Part shown: positions 652-59,100 of the stretch, piece by piece | Numbering within the stretch: the first letter of the stretch is position 1 | Layout of the letters: every line of letters starts with the position of its first letter | Source of the DNA: Tubulanus polymorphus | Taxonomy: Eukaryota > Nemertea > Palaeonemertea > Tubulaniformes > Tubulanidae | Length of the DNA stretch: 60,000 bases | NCBI RefSeq assembly: GCF_964204645.1 | Contig: NC_134033.1 | Span: forward strand, 11,741,155-11,801,154 | Reading direction: 5' to 3' | Made by a program: the position numbers and the translations under genes | Notes under the pieces: model-generated | Database searches by the model: none | Told to the model about the DNA's origin: nothing | Seen by the model: the letters and a program-made list of their open reading frames with translations, nothing else

Positions 652-6463
<5,812 letters not shown>

Positions 6464-13514: not shown

Positions 13515-14180
13515 TTAAGATCCTGGTAGCCAATTAACGATTCCATTGATCCGCAAACTTTTCCTGAAAATAAAGAACGTTTCGGGTTAAAAACCAATCG
13601 TAGCCATAAATATCGATCGATGTTGAATCATTCAGTTAAACAGTTCAATGGAGATGGAAATCTACTCACTTTTTAGACTGAGAGTGTGTTTGTGCTGAGT
13701 GGCTTGCAACTTTAGCAGCGACTTTTTCGTCCCCCTTCTTCTTCATCGTCTTCATCTTACCATCTGTTTTCTTCTTCCCTTCATCCTTCTTCTCCCCTGC
13801 CTTCTTCTTTATCTTCATTTCTTTATGCTTGTTCGGTTTAGCAGGTTTGATGCTTTCACCGTTCGGCGCAGCTGCAGCGTTCACAGCACCCGTGTCGATC
13901 GCGGATGTTTCAGCGCCAGCACTGCTATTACTACTGCTGCTGCTGCTACCACTGCTAGCTACCATGCTACCACTGCCGCTGCTGCTACCACTGCTAGCTA
14001 CCACTGATTGCTGGGCAGCTACAGCTACGCTTTGTTGGCTGGAACCATTCACAACCTGTTTGACCTCAGTCGGTTGCACGGTTTTTATGATGACTTGCCG
14101 AACGTGATGCGCCGACTTGACGATTGTGTCTTGCGGTTTCGACGACACCTTTTCAGTGACACTTTGTTTTAATGCGTTGC
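13515..14180 (-). other. C-terminal Ser-rich and Lys-rich tail of gene 3
   Basis: Exon 13670-14180 encodes runs of Ser/Gly/Ala (for example SSGSSSGSGS and SSSSSSNSS), then a polycationic stretch rich in Lys (KKKAGEKKDEGKKK). Its donor, AAAAA/GTGAGT, contains an in-frame TGA, so unspliced RNA would stop just after QSKK. The strong acceptor TTTTCAG at 13563 adds 16 codons ending NWLPGS and TAA. Both ends are possible; splicing fits the consensus better. Cationic tails occur in marine adhesive proteins, where they aid surface binding and coacervation; that use here is inference. Confidence 0.7.
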
Positions 14181-23100: not shown

Positions 23101-26100
23101 TGTTCGACTTATCATTTTCGAATCCTCGCAGAGTCAAATTTTAGGCGAGAACCATAGAACTATTCATACTTGTTTAGAAGACGGCTTTGTACCAACGGAG
23201 AAGACCTTCGTTCGGATAGTATGGATTACAGAACCGATATTTGGTGGTTCCTGGCGACTCCGGACGACTTTTATAACGTTCAAGGCTTCGTCTTCATTCT
23301 GAAATCCAACGACAATATCAACATATTTCACAAATCGTTATCGTGTATGTTAACGTCGATACATCCATCTTGACATGAATAGGATCGCCGACATTACTTA
23401 CTGCTATATCTTTATTTACAGTTAGTGCCTTATCCGAGAATGTCACTAAAGTCAGACGGACCATCTTAGGACCAACGTCTAGTTTTTGCACAACCCTTGA
23501 AGCTAGGTCCTTAGCATTTTCGAGGATAGTCCAGGAAACTTCTTTCGATACGTCAATGACTATGACAACGTGCAACTTCATCGACACTACAATGGATTTA
23601 TGCACATCTATCGTTTTATTAAATCATTAAGAAGAGAAAAGAAGTTCTATCCAATTAATGAATATTTTACCGATGCATCCTTGTTTTGGGCTAAGTTTGA
23701 GGAGGCTGCTACAAGGACAGGCGAATGATCCTGGTAGGTTTTTACACGTCCCTCCGCGGTGGCATGGGTTACTGCCAAGACATTCGTCAATATCTATTTT
23801 AAGAGTGAAAGTATACCAGTTTATAATTGTGTTGTCTTTAGGTCTTTTAAACGATTTAGTATTTTCGACAATAGGCCTATACATTAACATTTCTGTGTTC
23901 AAATTCAAAGATAGAGCATATCGGCCAAAGCGAGTGCCAAAGGCAGTAATTAAAAGTGGATTTTGGAGTTCTTTTCAAAGAATTTACAAAATTATATCTC
24001 TAGACATGGTATATCTCGGTACTTTCAAAATTCTCAAACGTTCACAAACGATGAAATTGGTAACTCAGCACTTCACTCACCGTGACAAGATGAAGAAGTA
24101 CTGGTTCCATTCTTTTTCGCCATGGAGTAACCAAATTTCTTGCATTTATACGTATCTGAAAAAAGTCAAAATGTTAAAGAAGCATGGTTCGTGATCATGG
24201 GGTACCGGTATTTGCCCTGGGTACAGTTTCCTCGCTTACCAGTGAAAATACGTTTGAAGATCGTTACTGACTTTCTAATCCAGACGTCGGTCTGAAGAGA
24301 TGAACTTGATATGACGTTTAGGATCGGTAACCATTTTATAAGGATGTTTGCTTCGGATGCGATGGAGACAGTGTACATGCGAACCTAACACATTAACGAT
24401 TTAAAAAGAAAGTTGAATAAAGAGCTTGATAATGAACAATTGATGAAAGGCAAACACAGTTCCTAGTTTTGGGGCAACTTACTAAATCCCGTTGGGGAAA
24501 ATTCACATAGATTTCAGGCATGAATTCATACAAGCAAGCACGCGCTACCTTCGCAAATACATCGCGCTTGGTTCATTATTATATCCCAACTTGAAGAAAT
24601 CATTCACTAACCTTCATATCATACAATTTTTTAAGTTCATCCATCACTCGTATTCTGTCATTATCGATACCTGCTCCTATGTAGAGCAGAACCTTTTTGG
24701 CTTTGACTCGATGGCCGCCTGATGTCAGTGCAATTCTAGCACTTTTTACGCAGGCCTGGAGGGACCTATTCGATGGCTTTTTGTTCAAACTTTCCTCAAC
24801 TTTCGATTCAGCGCAACTGTAGTCGTTGCAGTCTTTTAATTTGTTGGCAATGACTGGTGGAGACTGGCACAGAATCGTAGTTTCCCTAAAGGATTCGGCT
24901 TTGAATGGCAGGGCGGCGACAATTACGCCAAACACTTTGAGAATGATCTTAAATCCGTTTTCTTCACTCATAGATTGAAGCTTAACAGTGCTGTCAAGAA
25001 TGATTGCCATATCAACGGCACCACTAAGGCGAACTAGAATTATAGAGGTAAATATTGTAACATAACGGATCGTTATAAAACCGCCTCTTCATTAGCTGTG
25101 CACATAACTATTAAGCCCCATACATACCTTTTGGGAACGTTACGTTGTCTGGAAGACTTATATTTGGCTGGATAGTGATCCTACTTGTATTCCCAACAGT
25201 GACTCTTAGTGAAATAGTGGTTTGTTCACCAATGTTTTCAGCGACCTCGTGAATTATCCCTTGAGGTGTAGTATTATTATCAGGTGATACGATTGATGTA
25301 CTTGATGATGGTTCAATGCACTGGGTAGTTTTAATGTCCCAGGTAGCCCTTACATTTTGACACTTACAGGATGAGATCTGCATATCATACAAGGCCGTAG
25401 ACGGACAAGGCTGACACTTGTTCATAAGATCGATAAAGTTTGGGGCGTTACAGACACATTTGTGATTCTTCAAGCTGAAACCATTCTTACAGATACACTG
25501 CCCACCAACAGAACTAGAGTATTTTGGGCAGATGCATTTACCATACTCGTCTAAGACCATATTGCCGGAACATGAAGACGGAACACATGACGTAATCTTC
25601 GGGTTATACATTTCTCCATTTGGACAAGATGTACAAGTGCCATTCTTGGTGTATTTGGGAGGAACGCATTCGCAAACACGCTTGAAACTATTCATCTCAT
25701 AGCCATCATTGCATTTGCACAGCATTGTTTCTGGGTCTTCGACCGAATGGCAGGGGCAGACACATTCACCTTTTTTCAACTGCTTGTTTCCTAAGCAAAT
25801 GCATTTCTTAAGAGATGAAATATATATCGCACCAGCGGGGCATTTCATTACACATTGGTTGTCAACTGCGAACTGGCCAGGAGGACAGATGATGATTGGT
25901 GAGGTTTGGGTTATCTTCTTTGTCGTTGTAGATATCTGATGTATATCCTCCGGTACACACTTCCCAGTATTTAAATCAAATATTTTTCCAGGTGGGCATG
26001 TAATAGATGGTGATTCAGTTGTTGAAAAAGATTCCGGCGTTTTGCATTTATTAGATACTGGATCAAATATTTGCTCAGGCTTACACATTACTGCAGCCAT

Positions 26101-29100
26101 ATCCGTTGTCCCAGAAGATGGGGATATGCTTGTTGGTCCCGGATGAACAGTTGTTACGGTTCTTGAATGCGTTGTTTGTATACTTAGTTGACAGGTTTCA
26201 GTTGATGTGTTGAATGTTTGTCCAGGAGGACAGGTAACACCTACCGGTGTAGTCGCCATAGTTTTACACGTATTCGATACAGGATCGAGTGTTTCTCCGG
26301 GTTTACATGTTACAACAGAAGAGGGTCCACTAGTTGTCGTTATTTGTTTGCACGTGTTTGTTGCACTGTCCCAAACTGATTTTCCATCGACACATTTGCA
26401 CATTTTTGTAGAACTATCGGACTGAGAACCCGTAACGCACGGAACGCATTTCTTTTGTGAATTGATATATTTAGGCGCCTTACAACTACACTTCTCTTTT
26501 TCAAGAATGAATCCATTTGAACAAACGCAAGCACCTCCATTCGGCATCGAACCGCTAGGGCAAACACATTTACCAGTTCCATCTCGGAACTTGCCACCCT
26601 TACAAGGATTCGGCTTACACGAGTGGCTGGCTTGGTCATATTGCTGACCTTTAGGGCATGTTTTACATCGTCCATTCTGTAGGTATTTCGGCTGATCACA
26701 TTTGCAAACCTTATCAACGGCGTTCATTTCAAAACCATTCTGACACTTGCAATCCGCGGATGCAGGATCGTATTTGGAATTTTGTGGACATTCGCACTTG
26801 TTATTTTTCTCGACCATTACACTAGAACATTCACACTTCGTTTTCAGTGAGTTGAAAACCATCTTCTGGTCCTTACATACGCATTCATTGTTTTTCGCAA
26901 CCATACCCGCTGGACATGGTTCTTTCGTTGGTCCTGAAGTTGGGGCTATACTCGTCGGTCCAGGGTGACCGGTTGTTGCAGATTCTGGAGGAGTGGTTTG
27001 TGTGCTCGATTGACAGGTCTCAGTCGCTGTGTTGAATGTTTGTCCAGGAGGACAGGTAACACCTACCGGTGTAGTCGCCATAGTTTTACACGTATTCGAT
27101 ACAGGATCGAGTGTTTCTCCGGGTTTACATGTTACAACAGAAGAGGGTCCACTAGTTGTCGTTATTTGTTTGCACGTGTTTGTTGCACTGTCCCAAACTG
27201 ATTTTCCATCGACACATTTGCACATTTTTGTAGATTTATCGAATTGAGAACCCGTAACGCACGCAACGCATTTCTTCTGTAAATTGATATATTTAGGCGC
27301 CTTACAGCTACATTTCTCATTTTCAAGAATGAATCCATTTGAGCAAATGCAAGCACCTCCTCTCGGCATCGAACCGCTAGGGCAAACACATTTACCAGTT
27401 CCATCTCGGAACTTGCCACCCTTACAAGGATTCGGCTTACACGAGTGGCTGGCTTGGTCATATTGCTGACCTTTAGGGCATGTTTTACATTGTCCATTCT
27501 GAAGGTATTTCGGCTGATCACATTTGCAAACCTTATCAACGGCGTTCATTTGGAAACCATTCTGACACTTGCAATCCGCGGATGCAGGATCGTATTTGGA
27601 ATTTTGTGGACATTCGCACTTGTTATTTTTCTCGACCATTACACTAGAACATTCACACTTCGTTTTCAGTGAGTTGAAAACCATCTTCTGGTCCTTACAT
27701 ACGCATTCATTGTTTTTCGCAACCATACCCGCTGGACATGGTTCTTTCGTTGGTCCTGAAGTTGGGGCTATACTCGTCGGTTCTGGATGATCGGTTGTTG
27801 CAGATTCTGTATGAGTGATTTGTGTACTCGGTTGACAGGTCTCAGTCGCTGTGTTGAATGTTTGTCCAGGAGGACAGGTAACACCTACCGGTGTAGTCGC
27901 CATAGTTTTACACGTATTCGATACAGGATCGAGTGTTTCTCCGGGTTTACATGTTACAACAGAAGAGGGTCCACTAGTTGTCGTTATTTGTTTGCACGTG
28001 TTTGTTGCACTGTCCCAAACTGATTTTCCATCGACACATTTGCACATTTTTGTAGAACTATCGAACTGAGAACCCGTAACGCACGGAACGCATTTCTTTT
28101 GTGAATTGATATATTTAGGCGCCTTACAACTACACTTCTCTTTTTCAAGAATGAATCCATTTGAACAAACGCAAGCACCTCCTCTCGGCATCGAACCGCT
28201 AGGGCAAACACATTTACCAGTTCCATCTCGGAACTTGCCACCCTTACAAGGATTCGGCTTACACGAGTGGCTGGCTTGGTCATATTGCTGACCTTTAGGG
28301 CATGTTTTACATTGTCCATTCTGAAGGTATTTCGGCTGATCACATTTGCAAACTTTATCAACGGCGTTCATTTGGAAACCATTCTGACACTTGCAATCCG
28401 CGGATGCAGGATCGTATTTAGAATTCTTTGGACATTCGCATTTACTATTTTTCTCGACCATTACACCAGAACATTCACACTTCTTTTTCAGCGAGTTAAA
28501 AACCATCTTCTGGTCCTTACACGCGCATTCATTGTTTTTCGCAACCATACCTGCTGGACATGGTTCTTTCGTTGGTCCTGAAGTTGGGGCTATACTCGTC
28601 GGTCCAGGGTGACCGGTTGTTGCAGATTCTGGAGGAGTGGTTTGTGTGCTCGATTGACAGGTCTCAGTCGCTGTGTTGAATGTTTGTCCAGGAGGACAGG
28701 TAACACCTACCGGTGTAGTCGCCATAGTTTTACACGTATTCGATACAGGATCGAGTGTTTCTCCGGGTTTACATGTTACAACAGAAGAGGGTCCACTAGT
28801 TGTCGTTATTTGTTTGCACGTGTTTGTTGCACTGTCCCAAACTGATTTTCCATCGACACATTTGCACATTTTTGTAGATTTATCGAATTGAGAACCCGTA
28901 ACGCACGCAACGCATTTCTTCTGTAAATTGATATATTTAGGCGCCTTACAGCTACATTTCTCATTTTCAAGAATGAATCCATTTGAGCAAATGCAAGCAC
29001 CTCCTCTCGGCATCGAACCGCTAGGGCAAACACATTTACCAGTTCCATCTCGGAACTTGCCACCCTTACAAGGATTCGGCTTACACGAGTGGCTGGCTTG

Positions 29101-32100
29101 GTCATATTGCTGACCTTTAGGGCATGTTTTACATTGTCCATTCTGAAGGTATTTCGGCTGATCACATTTGCAAACCTTATCAACGGCGTTCATTTGGAAA
29201 CCATTCTGACACTTGCAATCCGCGGATGCAGGATCGTATTTGGAATTTTGTGGACATTCGCACTTGTTATTTTTCTCGACCATTACACTAGAACATTCAC
29301 ACTTCGTTTTCAGTGAGTTGAAAACCATCTTCTGGTCCTTACATACGCATTCATTGTTTTTCGCAACCATACCCGCTGGACATGGTTCTTTCGTTGGTCC
29401 TGAAGTTGGGGCTATACTCGTCGGTTCTGGATGATCGGTTGTTGCAGATTCTGTATGAGTGATTTGTGTACTCGGTTGACAGGTCTCAGTCGCTGTGTTG
29501 AATGTTTGTCCAGGAGGACAGGTAACACCTACCGGTGTAGTCGCCATAGTTTTACACGTATTCGATACAGGATCGAGTGTTTCTCCGGGTTTACATGTTA
29601 CAACAGAAGAGGGTCCACTAGTTGTCGTTATTTGTTTGCACGTGTTTGTTGCACTGTCCCAAACTGATTTTCCATCGACACATTTGCACATTTTTGTAGA
29701 ACTATCGAACTGAGAACCCGTAACGCACGGAACGCATTTATTTTGTGAATTGATATATTTAGGCGCCTTACAACTACACTTCTCTTTTTCAAGAATGAAT
29801 CCATTTGAACAAACGCAAGCACCTCCTCTCGGCATCGAACCGCTAGGGCAAACACATTTACCAGTTCCATCTCGGAACTTGCCACCCTTACAAGGATTCG
29901 GCTTACACGAGTGGCTGGCTTGGTCATATTGCTGACCTTTAGGGCATGTTTTACATTGTCCATTCTGAAGGTATTTCGGCTGATCACATTTGCAAACCTT
30001 ATCAACGGCGTTCATTTGGAAACCATTCTGACACTTGCAATCCGCGGATGCAGGATCGTATTTGGAATTTTGTGGACATTCGCACTTGTTATTTTTCTCG
30101 ACCATTACACTAGAACATTCACACTTCGTTTTCAGTGAGTTGAAAACCATCTTCTGGTCCTTACATACGCATTCATTGTTTTTCGCAACCATACCCGCTG
30201 GACATGGTTCTTTCGTTGGTCCTGAAGTTGGGGCTATACTCGTCGGTTCTGGATGATCGGTTGTTGCAGATTCTGTATGAGTGATTTGTGTACTCGGTTG
30301 ACAGGTCTCAGTCGCTGTGTTGAATGTTTGTCCAGGAGGACAGGTAACACCTACCGGTGTAGTCGCCATAGTTTTACACGTATTCGATACAGGATCGAGT
30401 GTTTCTCCGGGTTTACATGTTACACCAGAAGAGGGTCCACTAGTTGTCGTTATTTGTTTGCACGTGTTTGTTGCACTGTCCCAAACTGATTTTCCATCGA
30501 CACATTTGCACATTTTTGTAGAACTATCGAACTGAGAACCCGTAACGCACGGAACGCATTTCTTTTGTGAATTGATATATTTAGGCGCCTTACAGCTACA
30601 TTTCTCATTTTCAAGAATGAATCCATTTGAGCAAATGCAAGCACCTCCTCTCGGCATCGAACCGCTAGGGCAAACACATTTACCAGTTCCATCTCGGAAC
30701 TTGCCACCCTTACAAGGATTCGGCTTACACGAGTGGCTGGCTTGGTCATATTGCTGACCTTTAGGGCATGTTTTACATTGTCCATTCTGAAGGTATTTCG
30801 GCTGATCACATTTGCAAACTTTATCAACGGCGTTCATTTGGAAACCATTCTGACACTTGCAATCCGCGGATGCTGGATCGTATTTAGAATTCTTTGGACA
30901 TTCGCATTTACTATTTTTCTCGACCATTACACCAGAACATTCACACTTCTTTTTCAGCGAGTTAAAAACCATCTTCTGGTCCTTACACGCGCATTCATTG
31001 TTTTTCGCAACCATACCTGCTGGACATGGTTCTTTCGTTGGTCCTGAAGTTGGGGCTATACTCGTCGGTCCAGGGTGACCGGTTGTTGCAGATTCTGGAG
31101 GAGTGGTTTGTGTGCTCGATTGACAGGTCTCAGTCGCTGTGTTGAATGTTTGTCCAGGAGGACAGGTAACACCTACCGGTGTAGTCGCCATAGTTTTACA
31201 CGTATTCGATACAGGATCGAGTGTTTCTCCGGGTTTACATGTTACAACAGAAGAGGGTCCACTAGTTGTCGTTATTTGTTTGCACGTGTTTGTTGCACTG
31301 TCCCAAACTGATTTTCCATCGACACATTTGCACATTTTTGTAGAACTATCGAACTGAGAACCCGTAACGCACGCAACGCATTTCTTCTGTAAATTGATAT
31401 ATTTAGGCGCCTTACAGCTACATTTCTCATTTTCAAGAATGAATCCATTTGAGCAAATGCAAGCACCTCCTCTCGGCATCGAACCGCTAGGGCAAACACA
31501 TTTACCAGTTCCATCTCGGAACTTGCCACCCTTACAAGGATTCGGCTTACACGAGTGGCTGGCTTGGTCATATTGCTGACCTTTAGGGCATGTTTTACAT
31601 TGTCCATTCTGAAGGTATTTCGGCTGATCACATTTGCAAACCCTATCAACGGCGTTCATTTCAAAACCATTCTGACACTTGCAATCCGCGGATGCAGGAT
31701 CGTATTTGGAATTTTGTGGACATTCGCACTTGTTATTTTTCTCTACCATTACACCCGAACATTCGCATTTCTGATTTTGTGAGTTATAAACCATATTCGA
31801 GTCTTTACATTCACATTTACCATTTCGTTCAACCATACCCTTTTTACACTTTGCAGTCGTTGTTGTTGCAGGCTGCTTCGTTGTTTCAGTGGTCGGTGCT
31901 GGGCCTGCCGACGTTGTAACTGGTGGACTAGTCGTTGTCTTTTCGGGACTTGGAGGTGACGTTTTTGGTGTGGATTTCGTTGTCATTTGTCCACAAGTAT
32001 TCGTCGCACTATCCCACGTCGCTTTCCCGTCGCATTTACACATTTTTGTCGTTTGGTCAAACGTAGATCCAGAGACACATGATGTGCACTTGTTCGTCTT

Positions 32101-35100
32101 TTTATCGACGAACTTAGGTGCTTTACAAACGCAATTTTTACTGACGAGTGTAAAGCTATTTTTGCAATCGCATTTATCCCCATTTTCAGTCGATGCTGAA
32201 GGACAAACACATTTACCACTTTTGTCTCGGAACTTGTCACCTTTACAAGAATTCGGTTTACACGTTTTAGAGGCTTCGTCATATTGCAGTCCATTGGGAC
32301 ACGTTTCACATTTTCCATCCTTAACGTATTTCGGAGGATCACATTTGCAAACTTTATCAACGGCGTTCATTTGGAAACCATTTTCGCACTTACAATCCTT
32401 CGATGGTTCATCGTATTTAGAATTTTGTGGACATTCGCACTTGTTATTTTTCTCTACCATTACACCCGAACATTCGCATTTCTGATTTTGTGAGTTATAA
32501 ACCATCTTCGAGTCTTTACATTCACATTTACCATTTCGTTCAACCATACCCTTTTTACACTTTGCAGTCGTTGTTGTTGCAGGCTGCTTCGTTGTTTCAG
32601 TGGTCGGTGCTGGGCCTGCCGACGTTGTAACTGGTGGACTAGTCGTTGTCTTTTCGGGACTTGGAGGTGACGTTTTTGGTGTGGATTTCGTTGTCATTTG
32701 TCCACAAGTATTCGTCGCACTATCCCACGTCGCTTTGCCGTCGCATTTACACATTTTTGTCGTTTGGTCAAACGTAGATCCAGAGACACATGATGTGCAC
32801 TTGTTCGTCTTTTTATCGACGAACTTAGGTGCTTTACAAACGCAATTTTTACTGACGAGTGTAAAGCCATTTTTGCAATCGCATTTATCCCCATTTTCAG
32901 TCGATGCTGAAGGACAAACACATTTACCACTTTTGTCTCGGAACTTGTCACCTTTACAAGAATTCGGTTTACACGTTTTAGAGGCTTCGTCATATTGCTG
33001 TCCATTGGGACACGTTTCACATTTTCCATCCTTAACGTATTTCGGAGGATCACATTTGCAAACTTTATCAACGGCGTTCATTTGGAAACCATTTTCGCAC
33101 TTACAATCCTTCGATGGTTCATCGTATTTAGAATTTTGTGGACATTCGCACTTGTTATTTTTCTCTACCATTACACCCGAACATTCGCATTTCTGATTTT
33201 GTGAGTTATAAACCATCTTCGAGTCTTTACATTCACATTTACCATTTCGTTCAACCATACCCTTTTTACACTTTGCAGTCGTTGTTGTTGCAGGCTGCTT
33301 CGTTGTTTCAGTGGTCGGTGCTGGGCCTGCCGACGTTGTAACTGGTGGACTAGTCGTTGTCTTTTCGGGACTTGGAGGTGACGTTTTTGGTGTGGATTTC
33401 GTTGTCATTTGTCCACAAGTATTCGTCGCACTATCCCACGTCGCTTTCCCGTCGCATTTACACATTTTTGTCGTTTGGTCAAACGTAGATCCAGAGACAC
33501 ATGATGTGCACTTGTTCGTCTTTTTATCGACGAACTTAGGTGCTTTACAAACGCAATTTTTACTGACGAGTGTAAAGCTATTTTTGCAATCGCATTTATC
33601 CCCATTTTCAGTCGATGCTGAAGGACAAACACATTTACCACTTTTGTCTCGGAACTTGTCACCTTTACAAGAATTCGGTTTACACGTTTTAGAGGCTTCG
33701 TCATATTGCAGTCCATTGGGACACGTTTCACATTTTCCATCCTTAACGTATTTCGGAGGATCACATTTGCAAACTTTATCAACGGCGTTCATTTGGAAAC
33801 CATTTTCGCACTTACAATCCTTCGATGGTTCATCGTATTTAGAATTTTGTGGACATTCGCACTTGTTATTTTTCTCTACCATTACACCCGAACATTCGCA
33901 TTTCTGATTTTGTGAGTTATAAACCATCTTCGAGTCTTTACATTCACATTTACCATTTCGTTCAACCATACCCTTTTTACACTTTGCAGTCGTTGTTGTT
34001 GCAGGCTGCTTCGTTGTTTCAGTGGTCGGTGCTGGGCCTGCCGACGTTGTAACTGGTGGACTAGTCGTTGTCTTTTCGGGACTTGGAGGTGACGTTTTTG
34101 GTGTGGATTTCGTTGTCATTTGTCCACAAGTATTCGTCGCACTATCCCACGTCGCTTTGCCGTCGCATTTACACATTTTTGTCGTTTGGTCAAACGTAGA
34201 TCCAGAGACACATGATGTGCACTTGTTCGTCTTTTTATCGACGAACTTAGGTGCTTTACAAACGCAATTTTTACTGACGAGTGTAAAGCCATTTTTGCAA
34301 TCGCATTTATCCCCATTTTCAGTCGATGCTGAAGGACAAACACATTTACCACTTTTGTCTCGGAACTTGTCACCTTTACAAGAATTCGGTTTACACGTTT
34401 TAGAGGCTTCGTCATATTGCTGTCCATTGGGACACGTTTCACATTTTCCATCCTTAACGTATTTCGGAGGATCACATTTGCAAACTTTATCAACGGCGTT
34501 CATTTGGAAACCATTTTCGCACTTACAATCCTTCGATGGTTCATCGTATTTAGAATTTTGTGGACATTCGCACTTGTTATTTTTCTCTACCATTACACCC
34601 GAACATTCGCATTTCTGATTTTGTGAGTTATAAACCATCTTCGAGTCTTTACATTCACATTTACCATTTCGTTCAACCATACCCTTTTTACACTTCGCAG
34701 TCGTTGTTGTTGCAGGCTGCTTCGTTGTTTCAGTGGTCGGTGCTGGGCCTGCCGACGTTGTAACTGGTGGACTAGTCGTTGTCTTTTCGGGACTTGGAGG
34801 TGACGTTTTTGGTGTGGATTTCGTTGTCATTTGTCCACAAGTATTCGTCGCACTATCCCACGTCGCTTTCCCGTCGCATTTACACATTTTTGTCGTTTGG
34901 TCAAACGTAGATCCAGAGACACATGATGTGCACTTGTTCGTCTTTTTATCGACGAACTTAGGTGCTTTACAAACGCAATTTTTACTGACGAGTGTAAATC
35001 CATTTTTGCAATCGCATTTATCCCCATTTTCAGTCGATGCTGAAGGACAAACACATTTACCACTTTTGTCTCGGAACTTGTCACCTTTACAAGAATTCGG

Positions 35101-47100: not shown

Positions 47101-50100
47101 GCATTTATCCCCATTTTCAGTCGATGCTGAAGGACAAACACATTTACCACTTTTGTCTCGGAACTTGTCACCTTTACAAGAATTCGGTTTACACGTTTTA
47201 GAGGCTTCGTCATATTGCTGTCCATTGGGACACGTTTCACATTTTCCATCCTTAACGTATTTCGGAGGATCACATTTGCAAACTTTATCAACGGCGTTCA
47301 TTTGGAAACCATTTTCGCACTTACAATCCTTCGATGGTTCATCGTATTTAGAATTTTGTGGACATTCGCACTTGTTATTTTTCTCTACCATTACACCCGA
47401 ACATTCGCATTTCTGATTTTGTGAGTTATAAACCATCTTCGAGTCTTTACATTCACATTTACCATTTCGTTCAACCATACCCTTTTTACACTTTGCAGTC
47501 GTTGTTGTTGCAGGCTGCTTCGTTGTTTCAGTGGTCGGTGCTGGGCCTGCCGACGTTGTAACTGGTGGACTAGTCGTTGTCTCTTCGGGACTTGGAGGTG
47601 ACGTTTTTGGTGTGGATTTCGTTGTCATTTGTCCACAAGTATTCGTCGCACTATCCCACGTCGCTTTCCCGTCGCATTTACACATTTTTGTCGTTTGGTC
47701 AAACGTAGATCCAGAGACACATGATGTGCACTTGTTCGTCTTTTTATCGACGAACTTAGGTGCTTTACAAACGCAATTATTACTGACGAGTGTAAAGCCA
47801 TTTTTGCAATCGCATTTATCCCCATTTTCAGTCGATGCTGAAGGACAAACACATTTACCACTTTTGTCTCGGAACTTGTCACCTTTACAAGAATTCGGTT
47901 TACACGTTTTAGAGGCTTCGTCATATTGCTGTCCATTGGGACACGTTTCACATTTTCCATCCTTAACGTATTTCGGAGGATCACATTTGCAAACTTTATC
48001 AACGGCGTTCATTTGGAAACCATTTTCGCACTTACAATCCTTCGATGGTTCATCGTATTTAGAATTTTGTGGACATTCGCACTTGTTATTTTTCTCTACC
48101 ATTACACCCGAACATTCGCATTTCTGATTTTGTGAGTTATAAACCATCTTCGAGTCTTTACATTCACATTTACCATTTCGTTCAACCATACCCTTTTTAC
48201 ACTTTGCAGTCGTTGTTGTTGCAGGCTGCTTCGTTGTTTCAGTGGTCGGTGCTGGGCCTGCCGACGTTGTAACTGGTGGACTAGTCGTTGTCTTTTCGGG
48301 ACTTGGAGGTGACGTTTTTGGTGTGGATTTCGTTGTCATTTGTCCACAAGTATTCGTCGCACTATCCCACGTCGCTTTGCCGTCGCATTTACACATTTTT
48401 GTCGTTTGGTCAAACGTAGATCCAGAGACACATGATGTGCACTTGTTCGTCTTTTTATCGACGAACTTAGGTGCTTTACAAACGCAATTTTTACTGACGA
48501 GTGTAAAGCCATTTTTGCAATCGCATTTATCCCCATTTTCAGTCGATGCTGAAGGACAAACACATTTACCACTTTTGTCTCGGAACTTGTCACCTTTACA
48601 AGAATTCGGTTTACACGTTTTAGAGGCTTCGTCATATTGCTGTCCATTGGGACACGTTTCACATTTTCCATCCTTAACGTATTTCGGAGGATCACATTTG
48701 CAAACTTTATCAACGGCGTTCATTTGGAAACCATTTTCGCACTTACAATCCTTCGATGGTTCATCGTATTTAGAATTTTGTGGACATTCGCACTTGTTAT
48801 TTTTCTCTACCATTACACCCGAACATTCGCATTTCTGATTTTGTGAGTTATAAACCATATTAGAGTCTTTACATTCACATTTACCATTTCGTTCAACCAT
48901 ACCCTTTTTACACTTTGCAGTCGTTGTTGTTGCAGGCTGCTTCGTTGTTTCAGTGGTCGGTGCTGGGCCTGCTGACGTTGTAACTGGTGGACTAGTCGTT
49001 GTCTTTTCGGGACTTGGAGGTGACGTTTTTGGTGTGGATTTCGTTGTCATTTGTCCACAAGTATTCGTCGCACTATCCCACGTCGCTTTCCCGTCGCATT
49101 TACACATTTTTGTCGTTTGGTCAAACGTAGATCCAGAGACACATGATGTGCACTTGTTCGTCTTTTTATCGACGAACTTAGGTGCTTTACAAACGCAATT
49201 TTTACTGACGAGTGTAAAGCCATTTTTGCAATCGCATTTATCCCCATTTTCAGTCGATGCTGAAGGACAAACACATTTACCACTTTTGTCTCGGAACTTG
49301 TCACCTTTACAAGAATTCGGTTTACACGTTTTAGAGGCTTCGTCATATTGCTGTCCATTGGGACACGTTTCACATTTTCCATCCTTAACGTATTTCGGAG
49401 GATCACATTTGCAAACTTTATCAACGGCGTTCATTTGGAAACCATTTTCGCACTTACAATACTTCGATGGTTCATCGTATTTAGAATTTTGTGGACATTC
49501 GCACTTGTTATTTTTCTCTACCATTACACCCGAACATTCGCATTTCTGATTTTGTGAGTTATAAACCATCTTCGAGTCTTTACATTCACATTTACCATTT
49601 CGTTCAACCATACCCTTTTTACACTTTGCAGTCGTTGTTGTTGCAGGCTGCTTCGTTGTTTCAGTGGTCGGTGCTGGGCCTGCCGACGTTGTAACTGGTG
49701 GACTAGTCGTTGTCTTTTCGGGACTTGGAGGTGACGTTTTTGGTGTGGATTTCGTTGTCATTTGTCCACAAGTATTCGTCGCACTATCCCACGTCGCTTT
49801 CCCGTCGCATTTACACATTTTTGTCGTTTGGTCAAACGTAGATCCAGAGACACATGATGTGCACTTGTTCGTCTTTTTATCGACGAACTTAGGTGCTTTA
49901 CAAACGCAATTTTTACTGACGAGTGTAAAGCCATTTTTGCAATCGCATTTATCCCCATTTTCAGTCGATGCTGAAGGACAAACACATTTACCGCTTTTGT
50001 CTCGGAACTTGTCACCTTTACAAGAATTCGGTTTACACGTTTTAGAGGCTTCGTCATATTGCTGTCCATTGGGACACGTTTCACATTTTCCATCCTTAAC

Positions 50101-53100
50101 GTATTTCGGAGGATCACATTTGCAAACTTTATCAACGGCGTTCATTTGGAAACCATTTTCGCACTTACAATCCTTCGATGGTTCATCGTATTTAGAATTT
50201 TGTGGACATTCGCACTTGTTATTTTTCTCTAACATTACACCCGAACATTCGCATTTCTGATTTTGTGAGTTATAAACCATCTTCGAGTCTTTACATTCAC
50301 ATTTACCATTTCGTTCAACCATACCCTTTTTACACTTTGCAGTCGTTGTTGTTGCAGGCTGCTTCGTTGTTTCAGTGGTCGGTGCTGGGCCTGCCGACGT
50401 TGTAACTGGTGGACTAGTCGTTGTCTTTTCGGGACTTGGAGGTGACGTTTTTGGTGTGGATTTCGTTGTCATTTGTCCACAAGTATTCGTCGCACTATCC
50501 CACGTCGCTTTCCCGTCGCATTTACACATTTTTGTCGTTTGGTCAAACGTAGATCCAGAGACACATGATGTGCACTTGTTCGTCTTTTTATCGACGAACT
50601 TAGGTGCTTTACAAACGCAATTTTTACTGACGAGTGTAAAGCCATTTTTGCAATCGCATTTATCCCCATTTTCAGTCGATGCTGAAGGACAAACACATTT
50701 ACCACTTTTGTCTCGGAACTTGTCACCTTTACAAGAATTCGGTTTACACGTTTTAGAGGCTTCGTCATATTGCTGTCCATTGGGACACGTTTCACATTTT
50801 CCATCCTTAACGTATTTCGGAGGATCACATTTGCAAACTTTATCAACGGCGTTCATTTGGAAACCATTTTCGCACTTACAATCCTTCGATGGTTCATCGT
50901 ATTTAGAATTTTGTGGACATTCGCACTTGTTATTTTTCTCTACCATTACACCCGAACATTCGCATTTCTGATTTTGTGAGTTATAAACCATATTCGAGTC
51001 TTTACATTCACATTTACCATTTCGTTCAACCATACCCTTTTTACACTTTGCAGTCGTTGTTGTTGCAGGCTGCTTCGTTGTTTCAGTGGTCGGTGCTGGG
51101 CCTGCCGACGTTGTAACTGGTGGACTAGTCGTTGTCTTTTCGGGACTTGGAGGTGACGTTTTTGGTGTGGATTTCGTTGTCATTTGTCCACAAGTATTCG
51201 TCGCACTATCCCACGTCGCTTTCCCGTCGCATTTACACATTTTTGTCGTTTGGTCAAACGTAGATCCAGAGACACATGATGTGCACTTGTTCGTCTTTTT
51301 ATCGACGAACTTAGGTGCTTTACAAACGCAATTTTTACTGACGAGTGTAAAGCCATTTTTGCAATCGCATTTATCCCCATTTTCAGTCGATGCTGAAGGA
51401 CAAACACATTTACCACTTTTGTCTCGGAACTTGTCACCTTTACAAGAATTCGGTTTACACGTTTTAGAGGCTTCGTCATATTGCTGTCCATTGGGACACG
51501 TTTCACATTTTCCATCCTTAACGTATTTCGGAGGATCACATTTGCAAACTTTATCAACGGCGTTCATTTGGAAACCATTTTCGCACTTACAATCCTTCGA
51601 TGGTTCATCGTAATTAGAATTTTGTGGACATTCGCACTTGTTATTTTTCTCTACCATTACACCCGAACATTCGCATTTCTGATTTTGTGAGTTATAAACC
51701 ATCTTCGAGTCTTTACATTCACATTTACCATTTCGTTCAACCATACCCTTTTTACACTTTGCAGTCGTTGTTGTTGCAGGCTGCTTCGTTGTTTCAGTGG
51801 TCGGTGCTGGGCCTGCCGACGTTGCAACTGGTGGACTAGTCGTTGTCTTTTCGGGACTTGGAGGTGACGTTTTTGGTGTGGATTTCGTTGTCATTTGTCC
51901 ACAAGTATTCGTCGCACTATCCCACGTCGCTTTCCCGTCGCATTTACACATTTTTGTCGTTTGGTCAAACGTAGATCCAGAGACACATGATGTGCACTTG
52001 TTCGTCTTTTTATCGACGAACTTAGGTGCTTTACAAACGCAATTTTTACTGACGAGTGTAAAGCCATTTTTGCAATCGCATTTATCCCCATTTTCAGTCG
52101 ATGCTGAAGGACAAACACATTTACCACTTTTGTCTCGGAACTTGTCACCTTTACAAGAATTCGGTTTACACGTTTTAGAGGCTTCGTCATATTGCTGTCC
52201 ATTGGGACACGTTTCACATTTTCCATCCTTAACGTATTTCGGAGGATCACATTTGCAAACTTTATCAACGGCGTTCATTTGGAAACCATTTTCGCACTTA
52301 CAATCCTTCGATGGTTCATCGTATTTAGAATTTTGTGGACATTCGCACTTGTTATTTTTCTCTACCATTACACCCGAACATTCGCATTTCTGATTTTGTG
52401 AGTTATAAACCATCTTCGAGTCTTTACATTCACATTTACCATTTCGCTCAACCATCCCCTTTTTACACTTTGCAGTCGATGTTGTTGCAGGCTGCTTCGT
52501 TGTTTCAGTGGTCGGTGCTGGGGTTGCCGACGTTGTTACTGGTGGAACTTTGGTTCGTCCCGGCGTTGTTTTCGATGATTTTGGTACACATTTCTCAGTT
52601 GGGGTGTCATAGATTTCTCCTGGTTTACAAGTAACTTTGCTACGTCCCGGTGTTGTTGTCGACGATTTTGGTACACATTTCTCAGTTGGGGTGTCATAGA
52701 TTTCTCCTGGTTTACAAGTAACTTTGGTTCGTCCCGGCGTTGTTTTCGACGATTTTGGTACACATTTTTCAGTAGGGGTGTCATAGATTTCTCCTGGTTT
52801 ACATGTAACTTTTTTGCGTCCTGGCGTTGTTTTCGATGATTTTGGTACACATTTCTCAGTTGGGGTGTTATAGATATCTCCTGGTTTACAAGTAACCTTT
52901 TTGCGCCCCGGCGTTGTTTTCGATGATTTTGGTACACATTTTTCAGTAGGGGTGTCGTAAATCTCTCCAGGTTTACAAGTAACTTTGGTTCGTCCAGGCG
53001 TTGTTTTCGACGATTTTGGTACACATTTCTCAGTTGGGGTATCATAGATTTCTCCTGGTTTACAAGTAACTTTGGTTCGTCCCAGTGTTGTTTTCGACGA

Positions 53101-56100
53101 TTTTGGAACACATTTCTCGGTGGGGGTGTCGTACATTTCTCCTGGTTTACAAGTAACTTTAGTTCGTCCGGGTGTTGTTCTCGATGATTTTGGTACACAT
53201 TTTTCAGTAGGGGTGTCATAGATTTCTCCTGGTTTACAAGTAGCTTTGCTACGTCCCGGTGTTGTTGTCGACGATTTCGGTACACACTTCTCAGTTGGGG
53301 TGTCATAGATTTCTCCTGGTTTACAAGTAACTTTTTTGCGTCCCGGCGTGGTTTTCGATGATTTTGGTACACATTTCTCAGTTGGGGTATCAAAGATTTC
53401 TCCTGGTTTACAAGTAACTTTGGTTCGTCCGGGTGTTGTTTTCGATGATTTTGGTACACATTTCTCAGTTGGGGTGTCGTAAATCTCTCCAGGTTTACAA
53501 GTAACTTTGGTTCGTCCCGGTGTTGTTTTCGATGATTTTGGTACACATTTCTCAGTTGGGGTGTCATAGATTTCTCCTGGTTTACAAGTAACTTTGCTAC
53601 GTCCCGGTGTTGTTTGCGACGATTTTGGTACACATTTCTCAGTTGGGGTGTCGTAAATCTCTCCAGGTTTACAAGTAACTTTGGTTCGTCCCGGTGTTGT
53701 TTTCGATGATTTTGGTACACATTTCTCAGTTGGGGTGTCATAGATTTCTCCTGGTTTACAAGTAACTTTGCTACGTCCCGGTGTTGTTTTCGACGATTTT
53801 GGTACACATTTCTCAGTTGGGGTGTCATAGATTTCTCCTGGTTTACAAGTAACTTTGGTTCGTCCCGGTGTTGTTTTCGATGATTTTGGTACACATTTCT
53901 CAGTTGGGGTGTCGTAGATTTCTCCAGGTTTACAAGTAACTTTGGTTCGTCCCGGTGTGGTTTTCGATGATTTTGGTACACATTTCTCAGTTGGGGTGTC
54001 ATAGATTTCTCCTGGTTTACAAGTAACTTTGGTTCGTCCCGGTGTTGTTTTCGATGATTTTGGTACACATTTCTCAGTTGGGGAGTCATAGATTTCTCCT
54101 GGTTTGCAAGTAACTTTGGTTCGTCTCGGTGTTGTTTTCGATGATTTTGGTACACATTTCTCAGTTGGGGTGTCATATATTTCTCCTGGTTTACAAGTAA
54201 CTTTGCTACGTCCCGGTGTTGTTTTCGACGATTTTGGTACACATTTCTCAGTTGGGGTGTCATAGATTTCTCCTGGTTTACAAGTAATTTTGGTTCGTCC
54301 CGGTGTTGTTTTCGATGATTTTGGTACACATTTCTCAGTTGGGGTGTTGTAGATTTCTCCAGGTTTACAAGTAACTTTGGTTCGTCCCGGTGTGGTTTTC
54401 GATGATTTTGGTACACATTTCTCAGTTGGGGAGTTATAGATTTCTCCTGGTTTACAAGTAACTTTGGTTCGTCCCGGTGTTGTTTTCGATGATTTTGGTA
54501 CACATTTCTCAGTTGGGGAGTCATAGATTTCTCCTGGTTTGCAAGTAACTTTGGTTCGTCCCGGTGTTGTTTTCGATGATTTTGGTACACATTTCTCAGT
54601 TGGGGTGTCATATATTTCTCCTGGTTTACAAGTAACTTTGCTACGTCCCGGTGTTGTTTTCGACGATTTTGGTACACATTTCTCAGTTGGGGTGTCATAG
54701 ATTTCTCCTGGTTTACAAGTAACTTTGGTTCGTCCCGGTGTTGTATTCGATGATTTTGGTACACATTTCTCAGTTGGGGTGTCATAGATTTCTCCTGGTT
54801 TACAAGTAACTTTGGTTCGTCCCGGTGTTGTATTCGATGATTTTGGTACACATTTCTCAGTTGGGGTGTCATAGATTTCTCCTGGTTTACAAGTAACTTT
54901 GGTTCGTCCCGGTGTTGTTTTCGATGATTTTGGTACACATTTCTCAGTTGGGGTGTCGTAGATTTCTCCTGGTTTACAAGTAACTTTGGTTCGTCCCGGT
55001 GTTGTTTTCGATGATTTTGGTACACATTTCTCAGTTGGGGTGTCGTAGATTTCTCCAGGTTTACAAGTAACTTTGGTTCGTCCCGGTGTTGTTGTCAATG
55101 ATTTTGGTACACATTTCTCAGTTGGGGTGTCATAGATTTCTCCTGATTTGCAAGTAACTTTGGTTCGTCCCGGTGTTGTTTTCGATGATTTTGGTACACA
55201 TTTCTCAGTTGGGGAGTCATAGATTTCTCCTGGTTTGCAAGTAACTTTGGTTCGTCCCGGTGTTGTTTTCGATGATTTTGGTACACATTTCTCAGTTGGG
55301 GTGTCATAGATTTCTCCTGGTTTACAAGTAACTTTGCTACGTCCCGGTGTTGTTTTCGACGATTTTGGTACACATTTCTCAGTTGGGGTGTCATAGATTT
55401 CTCCTGGTTTACAAGTAACTTTGGTTCGTCCCGGTGTTGTTTTCGATGATTTTGGTACACATTTCTCAGTTGGGGTGTCATAGATTTCTCCTGGTTTACA
55501 AGTAACTTTGGTTCGTCCCGGTGTTGTATTCGATGATTTTGGTACACATTTCTCAGTTGGGGTGTCATAGATTTCTCCTGGTTTACAAGTAACTTTGGTT
55601 CGTCCCGGTGTTGTTTTCGATGATTTTGGTACACATTTCTCAGTTGGGGTGTCATAGATTTCTCCTGGTTTACAAGTAACTTTGGTTCGTCCCGGTGTTG
55701 TTTTCGATGATTTTGGTACACATTTCTCAGTTGGGGTGTCGTAGATTTCTCCAGGTTTACAAGTAACTTTGGTTCGTCCCGGTGTTGTTGTCGATGATTT
55801 TGGTACACATTTCTCAGTTGGGGTGTCGTAGATTTCTCCAGGTTTACAAGTAACTTTGGTTCGTCCCGGTGTTGTTGGCATAACTCTGATTGGTGTTGTA
55901 CCTCCTTTTGGTGTTGTGACGCTTCCTTTTGGTGTTGAACCTCCTTTTGGTGTTGTTACGCTTCCTTTTGGTGTTGTGCCTCGTTTTGGTGTTGTTACGC
56001 TTCCCTTCGGTGTTGTGCCTACTTTTGGTGTTGTGCCTCCTTTCGGTGTGGTACCTCCTTTTGGTGATGTAACACTTCCTTTTGGTGTTGTACCTCCTTT

Positions 56101-59100
56101 TGGTGTTGTAATGCTTGCTTTTGGTGTTGTAATACTTCCTTTTGGTGTTGTAACGCTTCCTTTTGGTGTTGTACCTCCTTTTGGTGTTGTAATGCTTCCT
56201 TTTGGTGTCGTGCCTCCTTTTGGTGTTGTGCCTCCTTTAGGTGTTGTGGTGTTTCCTTTGAGAGTTGTGCCTCCTTTTGGTGTTGTGACGCTTCCTTTTG
56301 GTGTTGTGCCTCCTTTTGGTGTTGTGACGCTTCCTTTTGGTGTTGTGCCTCCTTTAGGTGTTGTGGTGTTTCCTTTGAGAGTTGTGCCTCCTTTTGGTGT
56401 TGTGACGCTTCCTTTTGGTGTTGTGCCTCCTTTTGGTGTTGTACCTCCTTGTGGTGTTGTGACGCTTCCTTTTGGTGTTGTGCCTCCTTTTGGTGTTGTG
56501 ACCTTTCCTTTTGGTGTTGTGCCTCCTTTTGGTGTTGTGGTGTTTCCTTTTGGTGTTGTGACGCTTCCTTTTGGTGTTGTGCCTCCTTTTGGTGTTGTGG
56601 TGTTTCCTTTGTGAGTTGTGCCTCCTTTTGGTGTTGTGACGCTTCCTTTTGGTGTTGTACCTCCTTTTGGTGTTGTAACGCTTCCTTTTGGTGTTGTGCC
56701 TCCTTTTGGTGTTGTGGTGTTTCCTTTGGGTGTTGTGCCTCCTTTAAGTGTTGTGCCTCCTTTTGGTGTTGTGGTGTTTCCTTTTGGTGTTGTGACGCTT
56801 CCTTTTGGTGTTGTGCCTCCTTTTGGTGTTGTGGTGTTTCCTTTGTGAGTAGTGCCTCCTTTTGGTGTTGTGACGCTTGCTTTTGGTGTTGTACCTCCTT
56901 TTGGTGTTGTAACGCTTCCTTTTGGTGTTGTGCCTCCTTTTGGTGTTGTGGTGTTTCCTTTGGGTGTTGTGCCTCCTTTTGGTGTTGTGCCTCCTTTTGG
57001 TGTTGTGGTGTTTCCTTTGGGTGTTGTGCCTCCTTTTGGTGTTGTGCCTCCTTTTGGTGTTGTGGTGTTTCCTTTTGGTGTTGTGACGCTTCCTTTTGGT
57101 GTTGTGCCTCCTCTTGGTGTTGTGGTGTTTCCTTTGGGAGTTGTGCCTCCTTTTGGTGTTGTGACGCTTCCTTTTGGTGTTGTGCCTCCTTTTGGTGTAG
57201 TAGTGTTTCCTTTGGGTGTCGTAGCATTTCCTTTCGGTGTTGTTGTTACTCCTTTAGGTGTTGTAGTATTTCCATTGGGTGTTGTGCCTCCTTTTGGTGT
57301 TGTAGTATTTCCTGTTGGTGTCGTTGTTCCAACGCACTTTTTCTTATCCGGTGATTCCATTGTACCATTTGGACAGGTGCATATGTTTTTTTTTTGGTCC
57401 CAGGATTTTCCACCGTCGCATTTTTTCTCGCATGATTTTGATTGATTGTTTTCCGTGTAACCTTCTTTACACACACATTTGCTATTTTTCACGACTCGAT
57501 TTTCGGATTCTTTGCATGTAGCGTTTGGTTGCTTGCACTCGCCATTGACTCGACTTTCACCTTCTTTGCAAACCGGTTTGCATGTTCCATTTACTTTCTC
57601 AGTCCCATTGGTGCATACCGATTGACAGGTGCCATTTCTAAGTACTTTACCATCGGTACAATTAACCTGCCCTAGAAGTTTATCCAGATGTGACATTTTA
57701 GACAAGCGAAACCTGTAGTAATGATTATCGATGTTAAATCAGGGGGCTGTTTCACATCTCTTGGTGTAATATAACTCGTTATACATATTAAGGGTTGATC
57801 ACTTGAAAATGAACTAATTCCAACACACTTGTCGGATCTCGCAACACTGTGGAAATTGGTCAGACCCTGTTTATTGAATGATTGTAGGGATGGAATGGCA
57901 TAATCAAATAACTAGAAGGTCCGATGGATATATATCATACCATAGCTCAATTTGTACACGACATATCAAAACTGCTCACTATCGATTTCGCGGGAATTTC
58001 GAAACTCATCATAAGATAGGTTAGTAAAGTTACTGAAAATTGCTTTAAAAATAGCCTACCTCCACAATTCCCGGTGGCCTCGTTAAATTTCTGATCTGAC
58101 TTTTCACAAGCGGCTGAAGTTATAAAGGGGCTTTTAAAAACATGTTTGACTGTTACGAAGTGTTTTTGAGTATTTCGATTTCTCAGTATGCTAAGTTCTT
58201 ACCAAGACAGTGGTCCCCAACTTTGATTAAGGGCGGTGGACACTTATCTGAAATTAAAGCATTGACAAGCATTGTTTATGTCACTATTACTCATCAGGAC
58301 TGAACTTAAGATGGCGATGCTGATATATGATGTCAGTGACAGAAAATATTTGAAATTCAAACGACTCACCCATTTGGCATTCACCATTTGTTGGCTTAGA
58401 ACCGACGGGACACGTTGGATTAGGAGGTGGATAGGCTGAAATTACGTGACACTGGATCGTTAAAGGACCTTCTTATTTAGAAAGCATTTATGGCAGTGAA
58501 ATCCAAACTAGGGACCAAAATGAGAATAGAGGAAAAGATTTATTTCTGAAACTCACTGATGCATTTTTTTGTGGTAATGTCCCATTTCTCTCCAGACAAA
58601 CATGGTGGGCAAGTCAGCACTGTAACAATTCAAGCATGGAATTGCTAGCAACGCATAAGTATTGTATGAAAAATGTAGATGTTCAACCGCGTGTGTAGTT
58701 ACCAATTGTAAATACTTACGGATACAAAGATTGCACTCTTTCGACCATCCCTCCGGGCACTTGTCAGCTACGGATGACAAACATTGTATGAAAAGAGGTA
58801 CGAAAATATCAATAGGTATGTACAGTAAAATGAGGGCTCGTCAGTCAAGATGGCCATGGCGTGCATCAGGTTTCCTCTCATACTCATTTAAAGTCTATTC
58901 ATTTTTCCCTCAAATCTAATGGACCCCAAATGAAATTGTATCATATGTGAACCAAACAGGATTGACATGAGTTGTATCCAGGAAGAAAGCCACTAAATAT
59001 TTGGATGGATATATGAAAGCTGTGGGTACTGGAGTGTGTAATGGGTAGTGTAGTGTGATCTGTGTGCATTTTGGTGGCCAGCACACAGATCACATCGTTC

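What the first reader, a model, noticed from the sequence alone, without database searches (positions are those of the whole stretch)
25128..57671. A 32.5-kb protein-coding exon
The sequence shows one open frame of 10,847 codons with in-phase acceptor and donor joined to ordinary small exons. This exceeds the longest human coding exon (MUC16, somewhat over 21 kb) and would rank among the longest known. The flanking gene parts average about 130 bp per exon, so intron loss or intron-free amplification is confined to this segment.
Basis: partly seen in the sequence, partly recalled or inferred. Interest (0 to 1): 0.88.

Follow-up and report, generated by a model that had tools for sequence, protein, structure and literature searches.

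The report
Giant 32.5-kb exon, cysteine-module protein
An animal gene appears to contain one uninterrupted coding block of about 32.5 kb that repeats a tiny two-cysteine motif more than 500 times inside a huge secreted protein of the glue or mucus type; it is very long, but longer coding exons are already reported in people.

Summary
The minus strand carries a stop-free frame of 10,875 codons (57738-25111); a phase-1 acceptor (57671, weak) and donor (25128, strong) bound a 32,544-bp exon, placed in a predicted 55-exon gene (71505-13666, about 13,600 aa). Differences between repeat copies favour synonymous sites, so it is coding. Of its 1,085 cysteines, 1,084 fall into 542 C-x(10-13)-C modules: 38 units of 29 aa, 29 of 237 aa, a hybrid, and six of about 274 aa. 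Flanking mini-exons mostly encode one such module each, which fits intron-free fusion and amplification. The exon is bracketed by two diverged copies (E 4e-73) of a VWA/EGF/VWD region. Closest architecture: flatworm adhesion protein ap2, or a mucin. Membership is not shown; function is inferred. The record claim fails as worded: a 2026 preprint reports longer human MUC12 coding exons. Copy number is uncertain, since 5,968 bp recur exactly one 8-unit block away. No RNA or read data were available. No relative of the repeat was found. The species is an unnamed animal, probably bilaterian.

The parts
25128..57671 (-). giant coding exon, 32,544 bp, phase 1-1
57319..57671 (-). 5' cysteine-rich start of the exon
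   Evidence: translation; composition
55903..57318 (-). TTPKG/SVTTPKG low-complexity block, no cysteine, 38.1% Ser+Thr, 14.4% Pro, net charge +72
52546..55876 (-). 38 tandem 29-aa units, one two-cysteine module each
31849..52467 (-). 29 tandem 711-bp (237-aa) units, each 13 two-cysteine modules plus a Thr/Pro-rich linker of 48 aa; neighbouring units 99.3-99.9% identical
31027..31848 (-). hybrid unit joining the 237-aa and 274-aa arrays
26095..31026 (-). six 822-bp (274-aa) units, each 15 two-cysteine modules in the copy examined; the sixth is more diverged
25128..26094 (-). unique 3' part of the exon, further two-cysteine modules and the linker to the next VWA domain
33168..44823 (-). units 12-19 recur as units 20-27: exact 5,968-bp match at lag 5,688 (44823-38856 against 39135-33168)
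25111..25113 (-). in-frame stop, inside the 94-bp predicted intron
24612..25033 (-). next exon, start of a VWA domain
   Evidence: VWA found in the C-terminal half by Pfam
58060..59863 (-). cysteine-rich mini-exons upstream of the giant exon (59863-59816, 58767-58720, 58619-58557, 58435-58370, 58247-58203, 58113-58060); 58767 and 58247 are candidates that the model skipped
13666..24155 (-). remaining 3' exons: VWA, EGF, VWA, VWD, C8, cysteine mini-exons, VWA, and a last Ser/Gly- then Lys-rich exon (14180-13666)

Best explanation
SHOWN by sequence: an intron-poor island, one 32.5-kb exon, lies within an intron-rich gene and is under protein-level selection. It encodes tandem two-cysteine modules with Thr/Pro-rich spacers, is strongly basic (net +647 over 10,848 residues), and is flanked on both sides by related VWA/EGF/VWD regions. 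INFERRED: it is the repetitive core of a giant secreted extracellular protein. Each C-x(10-13)-C module folds as a disulfide-closed beta hairpin, the modules stack into long rods, the Thr/Pro spacers carry O-glycans, and the terminal VWD/C8 and VWA/EGF regions link molecules to each other and to matrix or surface, giving a cohesive glue or mucus. The core arose by fusion of mini-exon modules without introns, then grew and was homogenised by unequal exchange of whole units and blocks. Component odds: real single exon 0.9; secreted structural protein 0.8; adhesive rather than general mucus, egg coat or matrix about 0.45.
For: Open frame and phases. Synonymous excess in all three unit types. 542 modules take up 1,084 of 1,085 cysteines; G at position 4 in 44 of 79 distinct modules against 7% background. 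Of 16 mini-exon peptides that I picked by hand, 14 hold a single C-x(10-13)-C module and 2 hold three cysteines; G at position 4 in 11 of those 14. The two halves of the predicted protein match each other, E 4e-73, 24.5% over 1,154 columns. Pfam: N half VWA x3, VWD, PAN, EGF_CA (below cut-off); C half VWA x3, VWD, C8, EGF_CA; a TIL exon on the N side. AlphaFold model (4 rows, mean pLDDT 71.7): two-stranded hairpins of 3 or more residues in 11 of 13 modules. Block duplication. Flatworm glue proteins have the same plan: Mlig-ap2 14,794 aa with 21 x 255 and 25 x 221 aa repeats between VWD/TIL and TSP1 domains; Tmed-ap2 7,228 aa with 8 x 330 and 12 x 230 repeats, 22.5% Lys; Mile-ap2 with an exon of at least 15 kb.
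Against: No RNA, protein or tissue data. The 5' acceptor is weak. The gene model uses generic splice matrices, codons from ORFs that I chose, and a fixed start and end region; it left out at least the TIL exon and several mini-exons and an EGF exon. No hit for the repeat in the protein searches, so no conservation evidence. Pfam finds PAN only in the N half and C8 only in the C half. TSP1, typical of ap2, was not found in this gene. The model fold has pTM 0.38 and no Foldseek match at E <= 0.001. The exact block copy could be an assembly expansion. Adhesive function rests on analogy alone.
Confidence: 0.5

Rival explanations
1. Gel-forming mucin or general mucus/cuticle protein: same exon and same protein, but a hydrated barrier gel and not a glue.
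For: VWD, C8 and TIL are domains of gel-forming mucins (recalled); Thr/Pro-rich blocks and linkers; large intron-free tandem-repeat exons are the rule in mucins (PMC13345508 abstract, listing; passages). Mucus proteins with ap1-like domain order exist in flatworms (PMC6745481).
Against: The core is 10% cysteine and only 21.9% Ser+Thr, unlike a classical heavily O-glycosylated mucin core; three VWA domains on each side are not typical of gel-forming mucins (recalled).
Confidence: 0.3
2. Egg-coat, gamete-binding or extracellular-matrix protein of the zonadhesin/matrilin sort.
For: The only two hits of the N half are amphioxus zonadhesin-like (E 7e-34, 26% identity, 26% coverage) and MATN1 (E 3e-8).
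Against: The hits reflect shared VWA and VWD domains; zonadhesin-like protein has no counterpart of the core repeat (best E 0.10).
Confidence: 0.15
3. Two tandem genes: the giant exon is the last exon of an upstream gene (ending at stop 25111, ...FPKGMYGA) and the VWA region is a duplicate gene.
For: An in-frame stop lies 15 nt past the donor, and the two halves are paralogous.
Against: Only 94 bp separate the donor from the next exon, leaving no room for a promoter and signal-peptide exon; donor and acceptor agree in phase and the donor is strong.
Confidence: 0.08
4. The array length is an assembly artefact; the true exon is shorter or longer.
For: 29 units at 99.3-99.9% neighbour identity over 20.6 kb, and an exact 5,968-bp recurrence.
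Against: Most units carry private or patterned variants, so the array is not one copy stamped out; even without the duplicated block the exon would be about 26.9 kb.
Confidence: 0.25

Closest known systems
Flatworm temporary-adhesion protein ap2 (Mlig-ap2, Tmed-ap2, Mile-ap2)
   Same: very large secreted protein; two consecutive tandem arrays of about 220-330 aa units; VWD and TIL domains; Lys-rich or Thr-rich; at least one giant exon (Mile-ap2, 15 kb or more)
   Different: no TSP1 found here; VWA, PAN and EGF present here; repeat sequence not compared, as ap2 sequences were not at hand; this unit is 13 two-cysteine modules
Human tethered mucins MUC12, MUC4, MUC16
   Same: central intron-free tandem-repeat exon of tens of kb, flanked by small exons, length-variable by repeat gain and loss
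   Different: core here is cysteine-rich and modular; no search for SEA or transmembrane parts was made; MUC12 alleles are longer
Caddisfly/moth heavy-chain fibroin and spider aggregate spidroins
   Same: structural secreted protein in one or two huge repetitive exons (28,008 bp in Phryganopsyche; AgSp1 42,270 bp in two exons)
   Different: no domain or sequence resemblance noted; those are Gly/Ser silk-type repeats without this cysteine lattice
Amphioxus zonadhesin-like protein
   Same: VWA and VWD/C8/TIL domains; best database hit of the N half
   Different: no giant repeat core

Membership tests
Flatworm ap2 adhesion proteins | two tandem arrays of 220-330 aa repeats in a giant secreted protein | tested here: met
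   29 x 237 aa and about 6 x 274 aa; secretion only predicted by eye from the first exon
Flatworm ap2 adhesion proteins | VWD and TIL domains | tested here: met
   VWD in both halves, TIL exon at 62569-62396, not part of the model
[quoted passage not shown]
   none reported by Pfam in the modelled halves; exons missed by the model were not all scanned
Flatworm ap2 adhesion proteins | sequence homology of the repeat; expression in adhesive glands | not testable with these tools
   no ap2 sequence or expression data at hand
Gel-forming mucins | VWD-C8-TIL assemblies | tested here: inconclusive
   one VWD in each half, C8 by Pfam only in the C half, TIL only on the N side
Gel-forming mucins | Ser/Thr/Pro-rich, heavily O-glycosylated core | tested here: not met
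   core is 21.9% Ser+Thr, 8.4% Pro, 10.0% Cys overall; only the TTPKG block (38.1% Ser+Thr) and the linkers (45.8%) look mucin-like
MUC16/MUC12-type tethered mucins | SEA domains and a transmembrane segment | tested here: inconclusive
   no SEA in Pfam results, which scanned four stretches of the exon and the two modelled halves; transmembrane not tested
EGF-type proteins | EGF fold in the repeat modules | tested here: not met
   190-aa module block: 0 Pfam families at E <= 0.1; Foldseek none at E <= 0.001

The most novel reading that the evidence does not exclude
A lineage-specific class of giant secreted protein whose core is a lattice of more than 500 two-cysteine hairpins, born when a string of one-module mini-exons lost its introns and became a 13-module cassette that was then amplified into a single exon of over 30 kb, between two duplicated VWA/VWD arms: a new structural principle for a bioadhesive or mucus rod, and a traceable case of how a record-class exon is made.
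Probability: 0.35. Interest if true: 0.7.

Novelty: new variant of a known kind. Interest (0 to 1): 0.52.

Why it matters
A 32.5-kb exon is far beyond the size at which exon definition is thought to work, so it is a natural test of how splicing spares very long exons; here the donor-like sites above score 4 are fewer than synonymous shuffling predicts (1 against 5.8, P 0.013), though that is one of six measures, and the other five do not reach 0.05. The locus also shows candidate stages of exon growth side by side: single-module mini-exons, a fused cassette, arrays, and a recent block duplication. If the protein is a glue, its repeating disulfide hairpin is a simple unit for biomimetic materials.

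Tried and rejected
Rejected: satellite or non-coding repeat that happens to lack stops (synonymous excess, domain context, in-phase junctions). Rejected: longest human coding exon is MUC16 (PMC13345508). Rejected: spider AgSp1 as a longer single exon (two similar exons). Considered and left: PKZILLA giant genes, which I only recall; one search gave two papers, seen as listings only. Pfam on exon stretches gave a Ribosomal_S24e match over its cut-off (E 9e-10) in the stretch 50500-53193 with no single stretch passing, which I take as weak matches summed over the 29-aa repeats; MORN, Galaxin_repeat, DUF6172 and others were below cut-off. PDB by sequence gave one antibody chain at E 0.05. Contig C77 was tried as a mitochondrial genome and is not one. 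Literature searches for longest exons were seen as listings apart from the papers named. A mucin/VWA/Nematostella query found none.

Organism: G000 is 267.8 Mb in 77 contigs; CCCTAA telomere repeats at 2 of 8 contig starts looked at (one of the eight reads N); a let-7 match at 51.1 bits, under Rfam's cut-off of 53.5, with the 22-nt mature form (recalled) complete in L050. I read this as Bilateria; no species name.

Not answered: a search for paralogues of the VWA/VWD arms in the own genome, bantam (85, 90), GFP family (27).
Full report
Observation. The frame is real and lies on the minus strand: stop to stop 57738-25111, 10,875 codons, no internal stop; the next longest frame of the window has 852 codons. 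The stretch 57671-25128 is 32,544 bp and begins and ends in phase 1. The donor is strong (5.9) and the acceptor weak (-0.1 on a generic matrix). AG sites at 57712 (2.2) and 57666 (0.1) give phases that do not fit the phase-1 mini-exons upstream. The frame's own stop lies in a predicted 94-bp intron before the next exon at 25033. Inside the exon I count 2 strong donor-like and 0 strong acceptor-like sites (0.06 and 0.00 per kb; upstream flank 0.07 and 0.33).

Gene. A simple dynamic-programming model (generic splice matrices, codon scores from ORFs that I picked, fixed start and end regions) gives 55 exons, 71505 to 13666, 13,602 aa. The 54 other exons average 153 bp, median 128. The model is incomplete: it leaves out a TIL exon (62569-62396; Pfam E 8e-11), mini-exons listed, and an EGF-like exon near 23.8 kb seen by eye. 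The first exon starts with a hydrophobic signal-like stretch. The halves before and after the giant exon match each other collinearly (E 4e-73, 24.5% over 1,154 columns). By Pfam both have three VWA stretches and a VWD; EGF_CA is over cut-off only in the C half, PAN is found only in the N half, C8 only in the C half. So the giant exon sits between two arms that arose by duplication.

Core. From 5' to 3' the exon holds a short cysteine-rich start, a TTPKG block, 38 units of 29 aa, 29 units of 237 aa, one hybrid unit, six units of about 274 aa, and a unique end. A greedy count finds 542 pairs C-x(10-13)-C, which take up 1,084 of 1,085 cysteines. The 237-aa unit is 13 such modules and a 48-aa Thr/Pro-rich linker; the 274-aa unit has 15. 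Of 16 mini-exon peptides that I chose from the flanks, 14 are a single module of this spacing and 2 have three cysteines. Glycine is at position 4 in 44 of 79 distinct core modules and in 11 of the 14 mini-exon modules, against 7% background. This resemblance is short and partly rests on my choice, but it supports the view that the core is a fused and amplified string of mini-exon modules.

Selection and turnover. Between copies, synonymous variants exceed the null in all three unit types (figures in the observation check). One search gave column-based ratios near 0.2, but its 237-aa figure included the hybrid unit, so I rely. Neighbouring 237-aa units are 99.3-99.9% identical. Units 12-19 and 20-27 share the same variants at all 22 variable columns, and 5,968 bp match exactly at a lag of 5,688 bp; units 26-27 recur as 28-29. 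This is what unequal exchange by blocks gives, and also what an assembly expansion could give.

Structure. A model of one unit from four rows (mean pLDDT 71.7, pTM 0.38) shows two-stranded hairpins in 11 of 13 modules with a disordered linker. Foldseek has no match at E <= 0.001; the top row is a Chlamydomonas mastigoneme filament (E 1.6e-3, TM 0.21). I take the hairpin ladder as likely and the overall shape as unknown.

Relatives. In the own genome the 265-aa query, taken across the 237/274 junction, found 37 matches at E <= 0.001, all inside this exon (counts are lower bounds). The protein database gave no hit for the 237-aa array (7,989 candidates scored) and none among 514 candidates of comparable full length for the last part. 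The N half hit two amphioxus proteins through VWA/VWD.

Comparison. Flatworm ap2 glue proteins share the plan, a giant protein with two tandem arrays of 220-330 aa units and VWD/TIL domains, and Mile-ap2 has an exon of at least 15 kb (PMC6410801, PMC6745481, PMC9229212; passages). TSP1 was not found here and VWA is extra, so I do not file it as ap2; it may work like one. For length: MUC12 alleles exceed it (PMC13345508, passages); h-fibroin exon 2 reaches 28,008 bp (PMC12576367, section 13); AgSp1 is split over two exons (PMC6553539, passages).

Verdict. Real and ranking among the longest coding exons that I could find, but not a record. The interesting part is the modular cysteine core and the visible route from mini-exon to giant exon. 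Transcription, copy number and function remain open.

Noticed in passing
window 11474-8020 (minus strand): Neighbouring gene with a signal-like start and a trypsin-type protease domain (Pfam Trypsin on one piece); a related stretch lies beyond the window near -3.5 kb.
   Followed up: partly
window 4758-1759 and about -7314 to -9949 (L011): Two similar VWD-containing gene stretches with near-identical exons, apparently a tandem duplication.
   Followed up: partly
window coordinates 78866-75200 (L008, upstream of the gene): Gene with astacin, TSP1-like and two MAM-like stretches (Pfam tested one astacin and one MAM piece).
   Followed up: partly
window 4170-4429: AT dinucleotide array of 130 copies.
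   Followed up: no
window 31790-48838 and on (plus strand): Series of 231-codon open frames on the opposite strand, one per 711-bp unit, a by-product of the repeat.
   Followed up: no
window coordinates 88650-81494 (L009, L008): Minisatellite-like stretches translating to CPERPLSFCRYQPALRGQFNCCSLTSDIT-type repeats in the upstream intergenic region.
   Followed up: no
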